35,775 bases of DNA. Origin: Synechococcus sp. SB0662_bin_14 (GTDB lineage: Bacteria; Cyanobacteriota; Cyanobacteriia; PCC-6307; Cyanobiaceae). The translations under genes were made by a program, and so were the position numbers. Location of the stretch: positions 1-35,775 of the forward strand of contig VXNS01000036.1 of NCBI GenBank assembly GCA_009840445.1, read 5' to 3'. Below the pieces are notes generated by a model that was not told where the DNA came from, did not search any database, and worked only from the letters and a program-made list of their open reading frames with translations. Shown piece after piece: positions 1 to 10,060 of the stretch (position 1 is its first letter; each line of letters begins with the position of its first letter).

Positions 1-612
1 ATCGGTTGGGGGGGTAACTTCCGGTAAAAACGCCAACGGGTTTGGTGTGTCCCTAAACCCACCCATCCCCTTCGCCAAACGTTAAAAATTTTTAAAAAAC
101 CCCCCCCCCCCCCCGAAAACCAAAGAAAGCGGGTTTTTAGCACTTCGGCGGCAGGGCTGAGCCTGCCTCCTGCCAGTGTACCAAGTGGCACAGGACCGCT
201 ACGAGCGACCCATGGCGCTCAATCACGGCTGGCATTAGCCGGTAGACGTTCAGATCTCCACAGGCAGGCATTGCCGCCCTTACCTGCCCAGCCAGGTCTT
301 CACGGGCCTGGACGGGCGTGCTCTTGTCTGGCGATGGGTGGGCGTGCTCTGTACTCCCCGACCGAGAACAGTCAGAGCCCTTTGTGTGCTTTGCCCTGGG
401 TTTGGGCCAAAGCAAAATTTGGCGATTTCAAAGCCAACCTGACCCATCAGGAAACGATTACTGACTGCCCAACGGGCATCTCGAAAGGATTGGATTTTTC
501 CTCGCTTGGAAAAGTCTGGGTAGCTGCGGCTACACATCCCCCTCCACTATCCATAGCACCTTATGGCTTACACATTCCAACCTCTGACCCGCTTTTATTC
601 CTCTTCATTCCC
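1..612. other. Gene-poor edge with poly-C tract
   Basis: No gene can be supported here. Positions 81-114 are low complexity: an A/T-rich stretch followed by a run of 15 C (100-114). This could be a true homopolymer or an assembly-edge artefact. From about 140 to 540 both strands stay open for up to 90 codons, but the translations have no recognisable domain, and the plus-strand reading frame simply runs into the downstream DUF1036-like gene. The block may be a fragment of a dispersed repeat or a decayed gene. Confidence 0.4.
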
Positions 613-1167
613 ATGAAAGATTTACCTCTGTCTCACTGGTGTTCTATCCAATTTTTGCCGCTCTTTGTCGCTTTGCTGGGCTACGTCCTGATTCTTGGAT
701 TCGCTAAGCCTGCAGAAGCGAGAATGAGGTTCTGCAATCATTCTGGCCAAAAGTTAGCTGTATCTTGGGCGTGGAAAGATACTGATAACGACTGGAAATC
801 CGAGAGTAGTTATATATACGATCCAGGAGAATGTAGTAATGTTTATTCTTCTCCTCTAAGATCAAGAATTTATTATTACTATGCAAAAGCTGTCAGTGGC
901 GGAACAACTCATGGTGCATCAACAGGAGCTAATAGAAGCTTCTGCGTTAGCAATCGTTCATTTGACATTGTATATGATGGTACTAATGTGCCTTATTATG
1001 ATCTAAATCACAAGGCCGCTGGTTGGAAAAGTACTTGTTCAGCACTCGGAGAAGGAACTGATTATGTATATCAGCTAAGAGATTTTCGCCAGATCAATAC
1101 AGGACGATTTGGTTTTCGTTGTACAGTTTATTTGGAGCAAAATGGAAGATCTAGTTATGACTGCTAA
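613..1167 (+). CDS. Secreted DUF1036-like protein (copy A)
   Basis: This 184-residue protein probably acts outside the cytoplasm. I chose the ATG at 613 because it places a hydrophobic signal segment (about residues 13-31) at the N-terminus, ending in an AEA cleavage-type site near residue 36. The frame is open further upstream (from a TTG at 271) but that stretch has no domain. The mature part starts with F-C-N-H-S-G (40-45) and contains a W/D-rich strand, a D-P-G-E-C motif, a run of Tyr residues and a later S-F-C. This is the arrangement expected of DUF1036 (PF06282), a secreted family of unknown function. The protein is Cys- and Tyr-rich. The gene is AT-rich (hand count 22 of 60 G+C at 781-840) against GC-rich neighbours, which suggests acquisition. 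A relative lies at 4072-4722. The family name rests on pattern only. Confidence 0.7.
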   Translation: MKDLPLSHWCSIQFLPLFVALLGYVLILGFAKPAEARMRFCNHSGQKLAVSWAWKDTDNDWKSESSYIYDPGECSNVYSSPLRSRIYYYYAKAVSGGTTHGASTGANRSFCVSNRSFDIVYDGTNVPYYDLNHKAAGWKSTCSALGEGTDYVYQLRDFRQINTGRFGFRCTVYLEQNGRSSYDC

Positions 1168-1179
1168 AGAAATCTCTTC

Positions 1180-1311
1180 GGGCACCTCGAGAAATTGCCG
1201 TCCCCCCGCATGGAAAGGCTTACTGGCCTACGAGAAATCCCTCTACAACTGACTTTCTCATGGTGAGACGGCAGCCCTCCAGGAGGCTTTACCCGATTTT
1301 TTGAGGTGCCC
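1180..1311. mobile_element. MITE-like element with terminal inverted repeats
   Basis: A 132-bp segment is bounded by imperfect inverted repeats. The left end begins GGGCACCTCGAGAAATTG (1180-1197) and the right end, read in reverse complement, begins GGGCACCTCAAAAAATCG; 15 of 18 positions match, with the outer 9 identical. The trinucleotide TTC occurs directly outside both ends (1177-1179 and 1312-1314), a possible 3-bp target duplication. The interior has no open frame of note. The structure fits a miniature or internally deleted insertion sequence. It lies between the first DUF1036-like gene and the small membrane protein. Confidence 0.5.
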
Positions 1312-1352
1312 TTCATCACCGCTCCCTCAACAATTTTTCATCCACCAGAATT

Positions 1353-1562
1353 ATGATCCAAGACCCAACTCAACACGAAGCCTCATCTGTCGCCTCTGAA
1401 TCGAATCAAGCCACCGTCAGTCAGCCTGATTCTACTCAGAAATCTTGTTACAGAGCGGCACTATGGCCAGCATGGGTGCAAGCGATAGCAACGGTATTTG
1501 TTGCTGTACTTGGACTTGTTGCATTTATCCATGTGGATCATAGGTATTGGAAAAGGGAGTGA
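1353..1562 (+). CDS. Small single-pass membrane protein, unknown
   Basis: A 69-residue product from ATG 1353. The first 36 residues are polar, rich in Ser, Gln and Thr. A hydrophobic segment follows (about residues 42-62), and the protein ends in a short basic tail (HRYWKRE). I recognise no family. No Shine-Dalgarno sequence is visible, so the gene call is weak. It sits between the MITE-like element and the subtilase, on the same strand as all genes of the envelope island. It could be a chance open frame. Confidence 0.35.
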   Translation: MIQDPTQHEASSVASESNQATVSQPDSTQKSCYRAALWPAWVQAIATVFVAVLGLVAFIHVDHRYWKRE

Positions 1563-1782
1563 CGAACCGGCAAAATCAGATGCCAGGCAGACGTCAGGAG
1601 CTTCCCTGGGAGGTGAGGAAGCGGGGGAGGTGGAAAAGAGAGAATAATTTGTCCCAAAAGAGCATTACAAAAGCCTTTTCAAGAGATGTTTATTCGCTTA
1701 CTCGATTTTCCACAGCAGCTCCTTAGCTCCTTTCCCCAGCCAACCCCACCCCCACTCCCAAACTCCAACCCCCACTCTACTC
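1563..1782 (+). promoter_or_regulatory. Leader region of the subtilase gene
   Basis: This 220-bp gap contains no gene. Its last 50 or so bases (about 1735-1782) are almost purely C, A and T on the plus strand, with repeated CCCCA/CTCC words right up to the ATG. There is therefore no Shine-Dalgarno sequence and probably an unstructured leader. No promoter boxes can be assigned with confidence. Confidence 0.25.
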
Positions 1783-3990
1783 ATGACCCTCTCCCCTCTC
1801 CAGAAATTCTCCCGCACCGCTCTGGTCCTCCCTCTCATTCTGCTGGCTTCCTGCGGCGGGAGCGATGACTCTGATTCCGCCACTGCTCGTTGCCTCAAAA
1901 CCCACAGTGGAGACTGCTTGACTGAGCCTGAATTGGCTAATCGAGCAAGGCAGCTAACCACCGCAATCCGCAAGAATCTTCGGAGCAGTCCGGGTGGCGC
2001 TCAAAATTGGGCCAGAGACGCGGTGAACGCCTATGAAGGCTATGCTCATGTTCATCTCATGAGAGGAGGAACAGCAGGGGCGTCACCTGGAGCAGGGATT
2101 CACATTGGCATCCTGGACACCGGGATTGACCTGAAACACCCTGACTTCGCTGGAATGGGGACCGGATCACGACAGCTTCAGGAAGGAGCTAAAAGGGAAC
2201 CACTCTTTTCGGAATCCCATGGTACTGCCGTGGCCAGCACAGCGGTGGGTTTTAACAGCGGTATTGCTTGGGGGGCAGACATGACGATGTTCTCGGCAAA
2301 GAATCCGGATCCTGGCCGCGGCGACTACGTGCCGCTGACGGCAGATCTTTACCAAGCAGCTCTCAATGAGAACCTGGATATCTTGAATATGAGTCTTGGT
2401 TATGGCCCCGGCCAGATTGACCGCAGGTCCTTTTCTGGCAACGTAGGAGCGATTAGCTCAACTTGGACTGAGGCTCAAGTACGTGATTTCTACGGATCCA
2501 ATATACTCAATGTGTGGGAACAACCAGATGCCTCTGAGAAAACGATCCTGGTCTGGGCTGCGGGAAATAATCACGGCAGGAATCGTTTCAATGCACATTC
2601 CCCCAGTCTTGACGCCGGCGCGGTGCGTTTCATACCAGAACTACAGGGCCACTGGGTAACAGTTGTTGCGACTGACAGGAGTGGAAATATCGCGGGTTTC
2701 TCAAACCGTTGTGGCATTGCTGCACAATGGTGCATCGCTGCTCCTGGTGAAAGGGTTCGAGTTGCTGCTTATGAGCCTTCTGGACTAAACACAAATGCTT
2801 ACCAAGAGCAAAACGGCACGTCTTTTGCGGCGCCCATGGTTAGTGGCGGCCTGGCTGTAATGAAGCAGTTGTTCCGTGGTCAACTCTCCAACACACAACT
2901 GGTGAGCCGGCTGTTTGCCACGGCCAAGAAGTCGGGCGTCCACGGCAATTCGGCCGTCTACGGCCAGGGCCTCATGGATTTGGGGGCCGCCACCAATCCC
3001 TGGGGAACCCCCGCCTTCATGGGCGCCGGCTCCTCCCTGGGGAACTCCGACGGGGCCGGCATGGCCACCTCCTTTGTCTCCCTGGGCAGCGCCCTTGGGG
3101 ACAGTTTGCCCCAATCCCTCCATCAACAGGAAATCGCCGCCTTTGACGGGCTGGGCGCTCCTTTCTGGCTCGAGGCCAGCAACTTCACCGTCCCCTCGGA
3201 CGGCGCTTCCGTCGCCACCCGCCTCAACCGCTTCCTGGCGCCGCCCCAGCGACCCGCCATCCCCGAAAACTGGCAGTTCGACTTCCAGGAGAAGGCTACT
3301 GCCACGGAGACCGGTCACCTGGCCCTCACCCATGGCGCTTCTCGTTTCACCGTGGCCGGTCCCCAGGGGACGGCCGCAACGCTCTTCCACAAACCCCAGG
3401 ACCTGGAAGGTCTGACCCTCTCCTGGACTCCCACCTCCCTGCCGGCCTTCACCATGGAAGCCGGCTACCTCAACGAGAACCAATCCCTGCTGGGCAGCCG
3501 AGGCAGCGGCGCCTTCGGCCAATTCTCCGGCCAAACCCTCTTCCTCGGCGCCGGGCTGGACGCCGCGTTCGGGGATTGGCAACTGGCGGCAGAGGGAGAA
3601 ATCGGCCAGGTGAATCCCTCCCTCTCCCACAGCCAGTTCATCGATGCCATCTCTCCCCTGTCCACCAGCGCCTTCCGCCTGGCCGCCAGCCGCCCCTTTG
3701 TCAAGGGCAGCACCCTGCGCTTCTCCCTTTCGGCGCCCCTGCGGGTCCACAGCGGCGCCGCCAGCCTTTCCCTCCCCACCGGCCGCACCCAGGGGGGCAC
3801 GGTGGTGGGCACAACCCTCTCCGCCCCCCTGGTTCCCAGCGGCCGGCAACTGGATCTCTCCGCCCAACTGGACCTGCCCCTGGCTGGCGGGGATCTCTCC
3901 CTGGGCGCCACCCGCAGCACACAGCCCCGCCATCAGCAAAGCGCTGCACCGGAGTGGACCTTCTTCACCGGCTATCGCGCCACCTGGTGA
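1783..3990 (+). CDS. S8 subtilase, NalP/SphB1-like lipoprotein autotransporter
   Basis: A 735-residue serine protease predicted to be exported and outer-membrane bound. The N-terminus is a lipoprotein signal with lipobox LASC, Cys24. The subtilisin triad is complete: Asp112 (ILDTGID), His146 (ESHGTAVAS) and Ser347 (NGTSFAAPM), with the oxyanion Asn at 262-263 (WAAGNN). After a linker, roughly residues 455-735 show alternating polar/hydrophobic strands and the chain ends in a terminal aromatic (YRATW), as in autotransporter beta-barrels. Subtilase plus lipobox plus barrel is the architecture of Neisseria NalP and Bordetella SphB1, which cleave other surface proteins. The barrel assignment is inferred from composition. 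G+C jumps near 2900, between protease and C-terminal part (28/60 at 2761-2820, 40/60 at 2941-3000), so the gene may be a mosaic. DUF1036-like genes flank it. Confidence 0.85.
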   Translation: MTLSPLQKFSRTALVLPLILLASCGGSDDSDSATARCLKTHSGDCLTEPELANRARQLTTAIRKNLRSSPGGAQNWARDAVNAYEGYAHVHLMRGGTAGASPGAGIHIGILDTGIDLKHPDFAGMGTGSRQLQEGAKREPLFSESHGTAVASTAVGFNSGIAWGADMTMFSAKNPDPGRGDYVPLTADLYQAALNENLDILNMSLGYGPGQIDRRSFSGNVGAISSTWTEAQVRDFYGSNILNVWEQPDASEKTILVWAAGNNHGRNRFNAHSPSLDAGAVRFIPELQGHWVTVVATDRSGNIAGFSNRCGIAAQWCIAAPGERVRVAAYEPSGLNTNAYQEQNGTSFAAPMVSGGLAVMKQLFRGQLSNTQLVSRLFATAKKSGVHGNSAVYGQGLMDLGAATNPWGTPAFMGAGSSLGNSDGAGMATSFVSLGSALGDSLPQSLHQQEIAAFDGLGAPFWLEASNFTVPSDGASVATRLNRFLAPPQRPAIPENWQFDFQEKATATETGHLALTHGASRFTVAGPQGTAATLFHKPQDLEGLTLSWTPTSLPAFTMEAGYLNENQSLLGSRGSGAFGQFSGQTLFLGAGLDAAFGDWQLAAEGEIGQVNPSLSHSQFIDAISPLSTSAFRLAASRPFVKGSTLRFSLSAPLRVHSGAASLSLPTGRTQGGTVVGTTLSAPLVPSGRQLDLSAQLDLPLAGGDLSLGATRSTQPRHQQSAAPEWTFFTGYRATW

Positions 3991-4071
3991 GCAATCTCTC
4001 CTGAGGGCCTGCAAGGGCTCTGCCCAACAAACAGCTTGTGTCACCTATCCCACTCAAGCCTTTCTTTTGCC

Positions 4072-4722
4072 ATGATCCCCGTTCGCCAATCGGTATCTGC
4101 CCAGCAAGACCAAGCGGATCAAAAGCCCGATCTCACGCTTTTCACGGAACTCTCAATTCCTGCTTCCCGTTACCCATCAACAACGAACAAGGCGGTGTTC
4201 GGACTCCCTGCTGTTTTCTTTGGCCTTGCGCTTTCACTCGGTCTTATCGGCAATGCAGCGCTAGCCTCCTGTACCTGTGATGAGCAGATACTAGGGAGGG
4301 AGTACTGTGATTCATACCTTGCACAGTGTCGTAGATATGTGACCAGACTAGAGGAGGTGCGCAAGCAAGCTAATAATTATGGCTGGGATGTATGTAACGA
4401 ATCTTCAGGGAGTGTTTATGCAGCCTATGCCTCTGCTTACCCAGGATACGGCTACACAAGGAAAGGCTGGACTACAGTTAGTCCAGGAGGTTGCAGAAGG
4501 ATACTGACTGAATCCATGACAGATAAAAATTATTATATTCGCATTGAAAGATCCGATGGAAGTAGTGTTACGAGAACAGAAAAGTCATTCTGTATGTGGC
4601 CGCCACAAAGCAACGGACAAACATATGAAGCTTCCTCGTCCACGTGTCGTAGTTGGAATGTGGGCAGTAAGTCTTTTCAAGAATTGCCAAAGGGCAATGG
4701 CTTTATTACTACAGTCCGCTAG
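4072..4722 (+). CDS. Secreted DUF1036-like protein (copy B)
   Basis: A 216-residue protein. I used the ATG at 4072; the frame opens slightly earlier (4036) without a better start. Residues 1-40 are polar, then a hydrophobic signal or anchor segment (about 41-63) leads to an ALA cleavage-type site near residue 65. A short helix with several Cys (67, 69, 79, 86) precedes the DUF1036-like core. The core has V-C-N-E-S-S (107-112), a GW followed by V-S-P-G-G-C (136-141), an NYY strand (153-155) and S-F-C (172-174). The spacing of these motifs matches copy A at 613-1167, although overall identity looks low. The unusually long N-terminal region before the signal is odd; a later start is possible. 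Function is unknown; a periplasmic or surface role is inferred. Confidence 0.7.
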   Translation: MIPVRQSVSAQQDQADQKPDLTLFTELSIPASRYPSTTNKAVFGLPAVFFGLALSLGLIGNAALASCTCDEQILGREYCDSYLAQCRRYVTRLEEVRKQANNYGWDVCNESSGSVYAAYASAYPGYGYTRKGWTTVSPGGCRRILTESMTDKNYYIRIERSDGSSVTRTEKSFCMWPPQSNGQTYEASSSTCRSWNVGSKSFQELPKGNGFITTVR

Positions 4723-4784
4723 TTTTCTGCTACTGACCTCCCTCCACAAGCTCTTCCAGATTGCGGTCAATCGACACGCATCAT

Positions 4785-6044
4785 ATGATGACCATGGCAT
4801 TCCTGGCTCCACCACCATCAGCGCCACCAACATGGTCCTGGCGCTTTCAGCGGGTAGGTCGCCGGGCCGGCGTTCTGGCCCTCAGCCTAGCCCTCGGCGT
4901 GCTGTCTTGTGCAGCCACGGGCGTTGCCCGGGGTGAACCCGGCAGGTCCCGTCTCTTTACGCCTCGCAGCCTGCGGCGTGTCGGTCCTGCCGTGGTGCGC
5001 ATCGACGGCGTAACCATTGAGCCCATTGGCGGACGCCCTTTCCCTTCCACTTCCATCACCCTGGAGCGGCAGAAATCTGATCCGTTTTTTCCTGATCCCT
5101 TCTTCCAGCAATTTTTCAACCCGCAACCCCACCAGAAGCAACTGGGGGCCGGGGTCGTCTTTACCGAGGAGGGGTTGATTCTCACCACCGCCCGGACGGT
5201 GGAAAGGATGGACTACCATCTGGACCTGCATTTCAGCGACGGCCGCACCCTGCCCGGCAAACTCGCGGGCGTGGATTTCGTGGCGGACCTGGCCGTGGCG
5301 AGGGTGGTGGCGGCGGCGCCTTTTGCCACGGCCCCCTTGGGGGATTCCGATAGGCTGAAGGTGGGAGATTGGATCGTGGCCGTCGGCAAGCACCCTTCAG
5401 GAACGGATAACACGGTTGCCACAGGCGTGATCAGCCGCCTTAACCATCACCAGGGCGCCCCTGATCAACAGTTGGAGACGATCCGGACGGACGCAGCCGT
5501 TGATCACAACAATGCTGGCGGACCTTTGGTCAATGTTGCGGGTAGAGTGGTCGGCATCAATACCCTGGCCCGCAGTGGCGAACCAGCGGATCATCAGGGG
5601 TTTGCCGTTCCCATCAACACGGCTCGCGCCGTGGCCGAGGAGTTGATCCGCACGGGATTGCGTCATCCCACTGTGGGCGTCAGGTTGTGGTCCCTCACCC
5701 CTGCCCTGGCGCGGGAATTCAACCAAAGCCCTGACAACACCGGCTTCCAGTTGCCGGAGCGCCAGGGAGTGTTGATTGTTGATGTCCGCTCCCGGAGCCC
5801 CGCCGAGCACGCAGGATTGCGGGCTGGAGACGTGGTGCTCACGGCCGCAGGCAGCAAAGTCGCCAGCCCGGTTGAACTGTTCCGGGCGGTGGCGTCCACA
5901 GGCGCAGGCGGGCGGCTGCAACTGGGCATCTGGCGGCAGAATCGGGTGCAGAAGGTCACGGTTGTGCCTGAGGAGATGGCGGAGCAGATGCGCCGAGCCA
6001 TGCGGGCCACCGTCACGCCCCTTCCTTCTCCTTCTCTCCCCTGA
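4785..6044 (+). CDS. HtrA/Deg-family pseudoprotease with one PDZ domain
   Basis: A 419-residue HtrA-type protein with an N-terminal hydrophobic export segment, a trypsin-like domain (about 110-285) and one PDZ domain (about 315-405). The fold landmarks of cyanobacterial HhoA/HhoB/HtrA are clear: GLILT, DLAVARV, LKVGDWIVAVG, RTDAAV and GGPLVN. The catalytic residues are not. The usual LTNAHVV reads LTTARTV, with Arg137 in place of His, and the usual GNSGG reads NNAGG, with Ala244 in place of Ser. Only Asp168 of the triad remains. It should therefore be a binding or chaperone-type protein, not a protease. ATG 4785 was chosen over an upstream TTG (4761); ATG 4788 and 4794 are also possible. Its stop lies 10 bp before the ankyrin lipoprotein, suggesting co-expression. 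Confidence 0.88.
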   Translation: MMTMAFLAPPPSAPPTWSWRFQRVGRRAGVLALSLALGVLSCAATGVARGEPGRSRLFTPRSLRRVGPAVVRIDGVTIEPIGGRPFPSTSITLERQKSDPFFPDPFFQQFFNPQPHQKQLGAGVVFTEEGLILTTARTVERMDYHLDLHFSDGRTLPGKLAGVDFVADLAVARVVAAAPFATAPLGDSDRLKVGDWIVAVGKHPSGTDNTVATGVISRLNHHQGAPDQQLETIRTDAAVDHNNAGGPLVNVAGRVVGINTLARSGEPADHQGFAVPINTARAVAEELIRTGLRHPTVGVRLWSLTPALAREFNQSPDNTGFQLPERQGVLIVDVRSRSPAEHAGLRAGDVVLTAAGSKVASPVELFRAVASTGAGGRLQLGIWRQNRVQKVTVVPEEMAEQMRRAMRATVTPLPSPSLP

Positions 6045-6054
6045 CCTTTTAGCA

Positions 6055-8178
6055 ATGTTGAATCTCCCCCAAAAAATCAGGTCGGTTCCCGTGACCCTGC
6101 CCCTGGTCATGGTGTTTTCCCTGGCGCTGCCTCTGGTTGCTTGCAGCCGTCCGACTTCTTCCCGGCCGTCTTCTTCGCCAGAACAGGTGACGGAAACGCC
6201 GCGGCAGGAATCCGTGCAAGCACCGGGCTTGGCAGCCCGCAACCGTACGGCGTTGCACGTTGCGGCGGCAGCAGGGGACGTGGAACAGGTGAAGCGGCTG
6301 ATCAACGCAGGACATCCGATCAACGCGCAACACCCGTCTGGTAGCCTCACTCCACTGCACAAGGCGGCCGGGGAGGGGCGCGCAGACGTGGTTCAGGTGC
6401 TCGTTGAGGCCGGGGCTCATCTCAATTACAAGACGGATAACGGCCAAACGCCTCTGCACCTTGCCGCTAAAATCGGTTCGGTAGAGATCTGTAAGCTGCT
6501 CATTGAAGCCGGAGCCAATCCCACGCTGATCGATAAAGACAACACAACTCCAAGGGGTATTGCAGCACAAGAAGGGCATACAGAAGTGGCTGAACTTTTC
6601 CCGGAGGACAGATTCTCTCGGAAGACAGAAAACGACTCTGTTGTTGATTCTGACTTGTACAATGCAGTATCGAATGGCCACACGGAAGTTGTGAAGACTC
6701 TCATTGCAGAAATGAGAAAGGGGAAACACTTTGATGGCTATTATGGATGGGATATGAATACAGTTGGCAGAGAAGACGGGAACGACAATACCTTACTTCA
6801 TGTAGCTGCCGCCAACGGTGATGCACAAATCGCCAACCTCCTGCTTGAAGCCGGGGCCTCTGTGACGGCTAAAAATAACCACAATAAAACCCCCGTTGAT
6901 CTTGCCCACGAGCACGGGCATGAAAGCCTGGCACAGCGGCTGGAGCGCGTTCCCCAATTGCTGGACGCGGCCGCGGCTGGTGACGTGGAGCAGGTGGAGA
7001 CCTTGCTGGCGGCCGGCGTCTACGTCAATGCCCACCAGTTTCCTGGGCGTCCTGTGGGCCCAACGCCGCTGCATCATGCAGCCGAGAAAGGATACGCCCC
7101 CATGGCCAGACTTCTCGTTGAGGCTGGGGCCAACGTCAATGCCCGCGTCCCGGAGCATTTTTACAACACTCCCTTGCATTTGGCCGCTTTTAACAACAAC
7201 CACACTGCCGTGGTTCAACTCCTCGTCGCGGCCGGGGCAAGCCTCGATAAACGGGCTAAGGACGGTAGCACCCCCCTGCTCCTGGCCACAGGAAACAAGA
7301 GCGGGAATCCGCAACCGGCCAGGCTGCTGATCCAGGCTGGCGCTGACCCCAACATCTCCAATCGCTACGGCAGAACGCCGCTGTTCCGGGTGGTTCAGAA
7401 CGGGGAGGCGGAGCTTGCCGATCTCCTGATTCAGGCCGGGGCAGACGTGAATGCTGCTGATCGTTTTGGCGCCACCCCATTGACATTTGCGGCAGAAAGC
7501 GGTTCAGTCGAAGTTGCTGAAGCGCTCATCAGCGCTGGCGCCACCGTCAATCCTGACCCCAGCAGCTTGCCCACACTGTATGACGGCAATACACCGCTCC
7601 ATGCGGCAGTAGGCGGAAGGAATCCCGCCGCAATGGTGGAGCTTCTGATTCAGCACGGGGTCAACGTCGATGTCATGGATAACCATGGCACTGCGCCGTT
7701 GCACACGGCAATTCGTTCCGGTGACGTGGCCGTGGCCAAGGCTCTGATAGAGGCGGGGGCGGACGTGAACGCTAAAAATGTTAACCATCAAGGGGATTCC
7801 GATAACTCCCCCTTGCACCTGGCCATCCATGAAGGCCATGGCGATCTGGCCAGGCTGCTCATCGAAGCGGGAGCCGATGTTCAGGCCAGAAACCATGCGG
7901 GCAACCCCCCTGTGCAGGTGGCGGCCTTTGCCGGCCTGCCGGAGGTGATCAAGTTGCTCGTTGAGGCCGGCTCGCCCGTCAACCTTCAGGATCAGGTGGG
8001 GGACACCCCGTTACACGATGCAGCCTTGAAAGGCCAAGTCGAAGCGGCCCGGGTTCTCCTTGAGGCTGGCGCGGACGTACACGCCAAAAACAACGCAGGC
8101 AAAACACCCCTGGACCTTGCCCGGCAACACGGCCACGAAAGCGTGGCCGCAGTGCTTCAGGCCGCCGGTGGTTCCTAG
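6055..8178 (+). CDS. Ankyrin-repeat lipoprotein
   Basis: A 707-residue protein made almost wholly of ankyrin repeats (about 18, many ending in variants of LLIEAGADVNA). The ATG at 6055 gives a lipoprotein signal with lipobox LVAC, Cys30, then a Ser/Pro/Glu-rich linker, so the repeats should be exposed in the periplasm or at the surface. The repeats form two blocks. Both begin with AAAAGDVEQV (residues 70-79 and 305-314) and both end with a capping repeat of the form KTPxDLAxxHGHES (from 278 and from 683). This points to duplication or fusion of two complete ankyrin units. A degenerate, lower-GC stretch (about 6540-6800) lies late in block 1. Ankyrin proteins mediate protein binding; secreted ones in symbionts can act on host cells, but no host target can be inferred here. 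Spacing suggests co-transcription with the pseudo-HtrA gene. Confidence 0.93.
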   Translation: MLNLPQKIRSVPVTLPLVMVFSLALPLVACSRPTSSRPSSSPEQVTETPRQESVQAPGLAARNRTALHVAAAAGDVEQVKRLINAGHPINAQHPSGSLTPLHKAAGEGRADVVQVLVEAGAHLNYKTDNGQTPLHLAAKIGSVEICKLLIEAGANPTLIDKDNTTPRGIAAQEGHTEVAELFPEDRFSRKTENDSVVDSDLYNAVSNGHTEVVKTLIAEMRKGKHFDGYYGWDMNTVGREDGNDNTLLHVAAANGDAQIANLLLEAGASVTAKNNHNKTPVDLAHEHGHESLAQRLERVPQLLDAAAAGDVEQVETLLAAGVYVNAHQFPGRPVGPTPLHHAAEKGYAPMARLLVEAGANVNARVPEHFYNTPLHLAAFNNNHTAVVQLLVAAGASLDKRAKDGSTPLLLATGNKSGNPQPARLLIQAGADPNISNRYGRTPLFRVVQNGEAELADLLIQAGADVNAADRFGATPLTFAAESGSVEVAEALISAGATVNPDPSSLPTLYDGNTPLHAAVGGRNPAAMVELLIQHGVNVDVMDNHGTAPLHTAIRSGDVAVAKALIEAGADVNAKNVNHQGDSDNSPLHLAIHEGHGDLARLLIEAGADVQARNHAGNPPVQVAAFAGLPEVIKLLVEAGSPVNLQDQVGDTPLHDAALKGQVEAARVLLEAGADVHAKNNAGKTPLDLARQHGHESVAAVLQAAGGS

Positions 8179-9760: not shown

Positions 9761-10060
9761 ATGTCGGAACAGCAGATTCCTGCCTTTTTAGAGCGCGTCA
9801 AGACAGACGAAACCCTTGCGGCGGCCCTGTTGGACGCCAAAACACCCGCAGAGGTCATCAGGCTCGCCGCCACTGCCGGCCTGGACTGCACCGCGGCCGA
9901 GATCAGCCAGTGGCAGGCCACCCGGGCCGTCTCCAAGCTGGTGGACAGCGGCATCTGCGCCAACGGCTTGCGCTGGCGCAGTCTCCATGGCCCGGGTGGG
10001 CTCCACGTGCAGATTGTGGGGGCCAGCACCAGCTTCGGGCTGTGGTGTCCCAGTTGCTGA
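9761..10060 (+). CDS. Nif11-type small protein, possible peptide precursor
   Basis: A 99-residue protein from ATG 9761. Residues 1-60 match the Nif11 leader pattern: an amphipathic N-terminus, FLERVKTDETLAAALLDAKT, then a second helix with EVIRLAATAGLDCTAAEI. Nif11 domains occur both in nitrogen-fixation-linked proteins and as leaders of ribosomal peptides in cyanobacteria. After the domain, a Gly-Gly at 79-80 is followed by a 19-residue tail containing Ser89, Thr90, Ser91, Cys96, Ser98 and Cys99, the composition of a lanthipeptide-like core. No modifying enzyme or transporter lies in this window, so the peptide role is only a possibility. The gene starts 24 bp after pebB and could instead be a pigment-related accessory protein. 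Confidence 0.7.
   Translation: MSEQQIPAFLERVKTDETLAAALLDAKTPAEVIRLAATAGLDCTAAEISQWQATRAVSKLVDSGICANGLRWRSLHGPGGLHVQIVGASTSFGLWCPSC

What the first reader, a model, noticed from the sequence alone, without database searches (positions are those of the whole stretch)
613..8178. Envelope island: two DUF1036-like proteins, NalP-like protease, pseudo-HtrA, ankyrin lipoprotein
Six consecutive plus-strand genes are all predicted to be exported or membrane-bound: DUF1036-like A, small membrane protein, lipid-anchored S8 autotransporter, DUF1036-like B, catalytically dead HtrA, ankyrin lipoprotein. The S8 architecture matches NalP/SphB1, which trim other surface proteins (established). A working hypothesis is that the protease processes neighbouring or host-contact proteins, the pseudo-HtrA acts as a periplasmic carrier for the ankyrin lipoprotein or barrel, and the ankyrin array binds a partner. 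The functional link is inference from co-location.
Basis: partly seen in the sequence, partly recalled or inferred. Interest (0 to 1): 0.8.

Follow-up and report, generated by a model that had tools for sequence, protein, structure and literature searches.

The report
Sponge cyanobacterium's modular cell-surface protein island
A cyanobacterium that lives in marine sponges carries a recurring, mix-and-match set of exported proteins (a surface protease, small cysteine-rich DUF1036 proteins, a protease-like protein that has lost its active site, and a large lipid-anchored ankyrin protein) that was not found in its free-living relatives, which makes it a concrete candidate for how the symbiont meets its host or its neighbours.

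Summary
Window 613-8178 (contig C6 of a 'Ca. Synechococcus spongiarum'-type genome) encodes two DUF1036 proteins over Pfam's cut-off, a lipobox S8 protein with an intact D112/H146/S347 triad and a barrel-like C-terminus, an HtrA whose catalytic His and Ser are replaced (R137/D168/A244), and an 18-repeat ankyrin lipoprotein. The 69-aa ORF between them has no relative in the genus. S8-DUF1036-pseudo-HtrA is syntenic in two further species and in one continues into ankyrin genes. DUF1036 followed by a large ankyrin gene recurs at four more loci; ankyrin ORFs without the shared leader have no DUF1036 neighbour (0/34). Pseudo-HtrA lost His in 4/4 orthologues yet stays under purifying selection, strongest in its PDZ domain. 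The S8 lipoprotein belongs to a family seen only in this genus, with constant anchor and barrel and swapped passengers. Unexpectedly, all seven Slam (type 11 secretion) genes of the genus lie directly upstream of a DUF1036 gene, and Slam is absent from 389 other cyanobacterial genomes sampled. I read this as a host-interface surface-protein module whose DUF1036-ankyrin pair is the recurrent unit. The molecular roles (carrier, processing, binding) are inference.

The parts
613..1167 (+). DUF1036 protein A: signal peptide plus cysteine-rich beta-sandwich domain
   Evidence: PF06282 52 bits; four of its Cys invariant in 21 genus DUF1036 proteins; beta-sandwich model, pLDDT 75.6; GC3 30% against 77% for neighbouring peb genes
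1353..1562 (+). 69-aa ORF with one hydrophobic segment; doubtful as a gene, probably not part of the module
   Evidence: no family; no relative in nine other genus genomes
1783..2997 (+). S8 lipoprotein: leader with lipobox and subtilase passenger (residues 1-405), triad D112/H146/S347
   Evidence: PF00082 145 bits; triad; passenger GC3 54%; matches to S8 autotransporter passengers
2998..3990 (+). C-terminal barrel-like domain of the S8 lipoprotein (residues 406-735, ends in GYRATW)
   Evidence: about 12-14 strands; outer-membrane barrel matches Z 10-12 over about 480-735; 42-85% identical among genus paralogues; GC3 83%
4072..4722 (+). DUF1036 protein B with exported leader
   Evidence: PF06282 43.8 bits; orthologues at the same place in G008 and G006, 62-64% identical
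4785..6044 (+). pseudo-HtrA: exported trypsin-like domain with R137/D168/A244 plus one PDZ domain
   Evidence: dN/dS 0.28-0.48 between the four pseudo-HtrAs, PDZ 0.11-0.19
6055..8178 (+). ankyrin lipoprotein, 18 repeats, lipobox LVAC-S, start 10 bp after the HtrA stop
   Evidence: PF00023 359 bits; leader and repeats; shared leader family found at DUF1036 loci

Best explanation
The region is a genus-specific, fast-evolving surface-protein module of sponge-symbiotic Synechococcus. Its repeating unit is a small exported DUF1036 protein followed by a large ankyrin lipoprotein; here a pseudo-HtrA lies between them and a lipid-anchored S8 autotransporter lies upstream. Most likely working: (1) all products but the small ORF pass the inner membrane by Sec (judged from leader sequences). 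(2) S8 is lipidated, its C-terminal barrel inserts in the outer membrane and the subtilase passenger is displayed outside (fold evidence weak; inferred). (3) DUF1036, a cysteine-rich beta-sandwich, is exported to the periplasm or surface and is the binding partner of the ankyrin lipoprotein encoded next to it (inferred from recurrent pairing). (4) Pseudo-HtrA, no longer able to cleave, keeps its PDZ domain and acts as a holding or escort factor for the ankyrin lipoprotein or the barrel in the periplasm (inferred). (5) DUF1036 genes and the protease passenger are exchanged between strains, as expected of surface proteins facing host or competitors (composition and synonymous divergence support exchange; the selective agent is inferred).
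For: Synteny S8-B-pseudo-HtrA in G006 and G008, with ankyrin genes following in G008. DUF1036 with an ankyrin gene next or next but one at six loci in four genomes; 0 of 200,000 simulations reach six. Ankyrin ORFs with the leader have a DUF1036 neighbour in 6 of 8 cases against 0 of 34 without it; the DUF1036 copies at those loci fall in several branches of the tree. Catalytic His lost in 4/4 pseudo-HtrAs (R/W/Q/Q), Ser in 3/4, while the genus-wide paralogue keeps H/D/S; PDZ dN/dS 0.11-0.19. S8 barrel constant, passengers swapped, dead or doubled. S8 passenger dS 0.92 against 0.28 for its C-terminus between G000 and G006; GC3 30-54% for DUF1036 and passenger against 83% for the barrel. Among sampled genomes of the window's family, only its own had a DUF1036 hit.
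Against: No localisation, expression or binding data. The S8 model has mean pLDDT 48, and Pfam's autotransporter model does not match the C-terminus. Pseudo-HtrA also occurs without S8 or DUF1036 on a 7.8-kb contig of G003, and three of the six DUF1036-ankyrin pairs, all in one genome, show neither HtrA nor S8 nearby, so the whole island is not obligatory. The ankyrin pairs could descend from one duplicated unit, which makes the simulated chance too low. Spacings of 185-220 bp argue against one operon for the first three ORFs.
Confidence: 0.45

Rival explanations
1. A chance neighbourhood: a recombination-prone spot next to the phycobilisome genes collects accessory surface genes that have no functional link.
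For: Strong compositional mosaic; a structural variant in G006, where contigs C101 and C151 share stretches at both sides at about 94-99% but one lacks S8 and B; A is unlike its positional counterpart in G006 (35% identity); the 69-aa ORF is an orphan.
Against: The same DUF1036-then-ankyrin order, same strand, at separate loci; S8-B-HtrA retained in three species at 62-83% protein identity.
Confidence: 0.3
2. A contact-dependent competition system: DUF1036 is a secreted, variable effector and the adjacent ankyrin lipoprotein is its periplasmic immunity or receptor partner.
For: Polyphyletic DUF1036 partners beside one ankyrin lipoprotein family; export leaders and cysteines; gene order effector then partner; variable passengers on a constant anchor.
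Against: No toxin motif or catalytic residue set in DUF1036; fold matches weak; DUF1036 also sits in Slam loci with no ankyrin gene.
Confidence: 0.15
3. An outer-membrane quality-control and scavenging set: S8 clears surface proteins, pseudo-HtrA modulates the active HtrA paralogue as MamO does MamE, and the ankyrin and DUF1036 proteins bind host matter.
For: An active HtrA paralogue in most genus genomes; MamO is a precedent for a dead HtrA that activates its active partner (PMC4794232); a His-His pair at 221-222 in all four pseudo-HtrAs and in none of six active ones.
Against: Does not explain why ankyrin and DUF1036 travel together; four genomes (G004, G005, G007, G009) have the active paralogue and DUF1036 but no pseudo-HtrA.
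Confidence: 0.1

Closest known systems
NalP/SphB1-type S8 lipoprotein autotransporters
   Same: lipobox leader, subtilase passenger with intact triad, C-terminal barrel-like domain ending in an aromatic residue; passenger matches S8 autotransporter passengers fusolisin (Z 12.3) and Ssp (Z 11.2)
   Different: in a cyanobacterium; C-terminus not matched by Pfam's autotransporter model; multi-copy family with dead, missing or tandem S8 passengers on the same anchor and barrel
HhoA/HhoB/HtrA proteases of cyanobacteria
   Same: trypsin-like domain plus one PDZ, best solved match HhoA, NCBIfam NF041521 261 bits
   Different: catalytic His and Ser replaced, GNSGG motif altered, below the family cut-off of 450 bits
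MamO, a repurposed HtrA pseudoprotease
   Same: HtrA fold with degenerate active site beside an active relative (PMC4794232)
   Different: different gene setting and lineage; no metal binding or activation tested here
Type 11 secretion (Slam/DUF560) loci
   Same: DUF1036 genes of the genus lie directly downstream of Slam in seven genomes
   Different: the window's island has no Slam; its own genome's Slam-DUF1036 pair is on contig C47. The two T11SS survey papers searched describe Proteobacteria and have no hit for cyanobacteria; the 2025 cargo survey has none for DUF1036
Ankyrin-repeat proteins of sponge symbionts
   Same: many ankyrin genes per genome; ankyrin proteins are a recurrent theme in sponge-symbiont papers (PMC6506613, PMC4850255)
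   Different: this is a distinct leader-bearing subset tied to DUF1036; most other ankyrin ORFs in the genus lack that leader

Membership tests
S8 lipoprotein autotransporter (NalP/SphB1 type) | lipoprotein signal peptide | tested here: met
   LLASC-GG after a hydrophobic stretch, similar in paralogues with a complete start; by eye and pattern, no LipoP
S8 lipoprotein autotransporter (NalP/SphB1 type) | subtilase passenger with Asp/His/Ser triad | tested here: met
   PF00082 145 bits, D112/H146/S347
S8 lipoprotein autotransporter (NalP/SphB1 type) | C-terminal outer-membrane beta-barrel translocator | tested here: inconclusive
   strand pattern and OM-barrel matches Z 10-12 but low-confidence model and no Pfam Autotransporter match
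S8 lipoprotein autotransporter (NalP/SphB1 type) | cleaves other surface proteins | not testable with these tools
   needs an assay
HtrA/Deg serine protease | trypsin-like domain followed by PDZ | tested here: met
   PF13365 83 bits, PF13180 50.6 bits
HtrA/Deg serine protease | catalytic His-Asp-Ser triad | tested here: not met
   R137/D168/A244 in the window; W/D/A, Q/D/S and Q/N/A in orthologues
DUF1036 (PF06282) | score over the curated cut-off | tested here: met
   A 52 bits, B 43.8 bits, cut-off 23
Type 11 secretion locus | Slam (PF04575) outer-membrane protein in the locus | tested here: not met
   the only Slam found in the window's genome is at C47:60385-61047, not in C6
Ankyrin lipoprotein | lipobox leader plus ankyrin repeats | tested here: met
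   LVAC-SR; 18 repeats
Polymorphic effector-immunity pair | toxic activity neutralised by the partner | not testable with these tools
   no assay; no toxin motif seen

The most novel reading that the evidence does not exclude
DUF1036 proteins are a new class of variable exported ligands or effectors in sponge-symbiotic Synechococcus, delivered in some loci by a type 11 (Slam) system otherwise unseen in the cyanobacteria sampled, and paired in others with a dedicated ankyrin lipoprotein partner, a protease-autotransporter scaffold with exchangeable passengers and a dead HtrA escort.
Probability: 0.2. Interest if true: 0.8.

Novelty: new variant of a known kind. Interest (0 to 1): 0.55.

Why it matters
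Ankyrin proteins are often proposed as tools by which sponge symbionts avoid being eaten, but how they would reach the host is unclear. Here a defined subset is lipid-anchored and tied to a small exported partner of unknown function, which gives concrete protein pairs to test. It also links DUF1036 to type 11 secretion loci, found in the sponge-symbiont genus and in none of 389 other cyanobacterial genomes sampled, and it offers an HtrA pseudoprotease lineage next to its active relative for studying how a protease is repurposed.

Tried and rejected
The idea that the S8 C-terminus is a TbpB-type Slam handle: no Pfam support in any of 11 paralogues; kept as an autotransporter-like barrel. DUF1036 fold search: best Z 8.1 to PUD-1 and about 8 to the C-terminal domain of cholesterol-dependent cytolysins, at the level the tool calls typical of unmatched models, so no function is drawn from it; no convincing solved relative by sequence. 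Relatives of the Slam-linked DUF1036 outside the genus: the scan of genome contigs returned seven loci, all from this lineage; the scan is limited to short patterns, so more distant ones are not excluded. Slam in other cyanobacteria: 1 of 390, the window's own genome. Promoter and terminator scan: no more than in shuffles. Papers: DUF1036 is named in one paper of the library only, as a hub protein of Liberibacter in a yeast two-hybrid map.

Full report
WHAT IS THERE. Six plus-strand ORFs precede the bilin reductase genes pebA and pebB. Five are well supported; the 69-aa ORF at 1353-1562 has no family and no relative in the genus.

PROTEINS. A and B are DUF1036 (52 and 43.8 bits; cut-off 23). 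Across 21 genus DUF1036 proteins four cysteines are invariant, and the model of A is a beta-sandwich with mean pLDDT 75.6. The S8 protein has a lipobox, an intact triad and a barrel-like C-terminus; the model is poor (pLDDT 48), but passenger residues match S8 autotransporter passengers and residues about 480-735 match outer-membrane barrels. The HtrA aligns over its length to HhoA but has R137/D168/A244. The ankyrin protein is a lipoprotein by sequence with 18 repeats.

PSEUDO-HTRA. Four orthologues exist (window, G006, G008, G003). His is R, W, Q and Q; Ser is A, A, S and A; Asp is lost in G003. The paralogue present in most genus genomes (C75 type, about 55% identical) keeps H, D and S. dN/dS is 0.28-0.48 for the pseudo clade and 0.12-0.16 for the active one; the window's PDZ domain against the other three gives 0.11-0.19. 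So it is a retained pseudoprotease with a constrained PDZ, not a decaying gene. All four carry His-His at 221-222 where active ones have Arg-Asn; meaning unknown.

CO-OCCURRENCE. S8-B-pseudo-HtrA is syntenic in G006:C101 and G008:C22; in G008 ankyrin ORFs follow, while the G006 contig ends inside HtrA. DUF1036 precedes a large ankyrin gene on the same strand at G009:C15, C53 and C64 and at G003:C8, where a catalytically dead S8 lipoprotein lies upstream. Eight ankyrin ORFs match the leader pattern (one, in L216, is a fragment that probably matches by accident); six of the eight have a DUF1036 neighbour on the same strand within 4 kb, against 0 of 34 others with at least 2 kb of upstream sequence (Fisher p = 5e-6). 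The leader pattern was written after seeing the sequences, orthology and duplication make the counts less independent than the test assumes, and the ankyrin list was cut at the weak end; the p-value is therefore a guide only.

SLAM. Seven of ten genus genomes carry one Slam (PF04575) gene, each directly upstream of a DUF1036 gene; in G009 it is split in two frames and preceded by a lipoprotein with a weak TbpB-barrel match (24.8 bits, cut-off 26). Of 390 cyanobacterial genomes only the window's own has Slam. DUF1036 itself is found in 44 of the 390. The seven Slam-linked DUF1036 proteins form one clade with the second DUF1036 of G003:C8 (support 0.99). These loci are outside the window but show that DUF1036 in this lineage keeps company with outer-membrane export.

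MOSAICISM. GC3 is 30% for A, 43% for B, 54% for the S8 passenger, 83% for the S8 C-terminus, 71% for HtrA, 64% for the ankyrin gene and 77% for pebA and pebB. Between G000 and G006, S8 passenger dS is 0.92 but C-terminal dS 0.28. Other members of the family join the same C-terminal domain to dead or degenerate S8 (G003:C8, G004:C90), to passengers with no Pfam match (G009:C19, G009:C20, G004:C159, G004:C152) or to two S8 domains (G003:C33). In G006, contigs C101 and C151 are 94-99% identical at shared parts, yet C151 lacks S8, B and the first 160 or so residues of HtrA while C101 has a truncated A: a strain variant or an assembly chimera.

HOW IT MOST LIKELY WORKS. Shown: gene content, dead triad, purifying selection, synteny, recurrent pairing, mosaic composition. 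Inferred: surface display of S8, binding between DUF1036 and its ankyrin neighbour, an escort role for pseudo-HtrA, and exchange driven by host or competitors. I put 0.45 on this reading as a whole and 0.3 on loose accretion in a recombination-prone spot.

NOVELTY. Each family is known. The association, and Slam-DUF1036 loci in a cyanobacterial sponge symbiont, were not found in the open papers searched. I rate it a new variant of a known kind.

Noticed in passing
G000:C47:59918-61047 (L074:7754-9771) and loci L140, L142, L143, L144, L146, L148: Slam (PF04575, type 11 secretion) gene directly followed by DUF1036 in seven of ten genus genomes; Slam found in no other of 390 cyanobacterial genomes sampled.
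   Followed up: partly
L072:3068-6571, L077:6132-8450, L237:3550-5706, L073:1-2106, L235:3076-4767, L236:2050-4560, L238:3139-5277: Lipoprotein-barrel family with exchangeable passengers: S8, dead S8, two S8 in tandem, or passengers with no Pfam match.
   Followed up: partly
L064 and L138 (G006:C101 and C151): Two contigs 94-99% identical at shared parts differ by presence of S8 and DUF1036-B and by truncation of HtrA or DUF1036-A; strain variant or assembly chimera.
   Followed up: partly
window HtrA residues 221-222 (about 5445-5450): His-His pair near the sensor-loop region, conserved in four pseudo-HtrAs and absent from six active paralogues.
   Followed up: no
window 1-130: Contig start with long C and A runs, possibly a low-quality assembly end.
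   Followed up: no
window 9761-10060: Nif11-domain ORF (46.7 bits) just after pebB.
   Followed up: no
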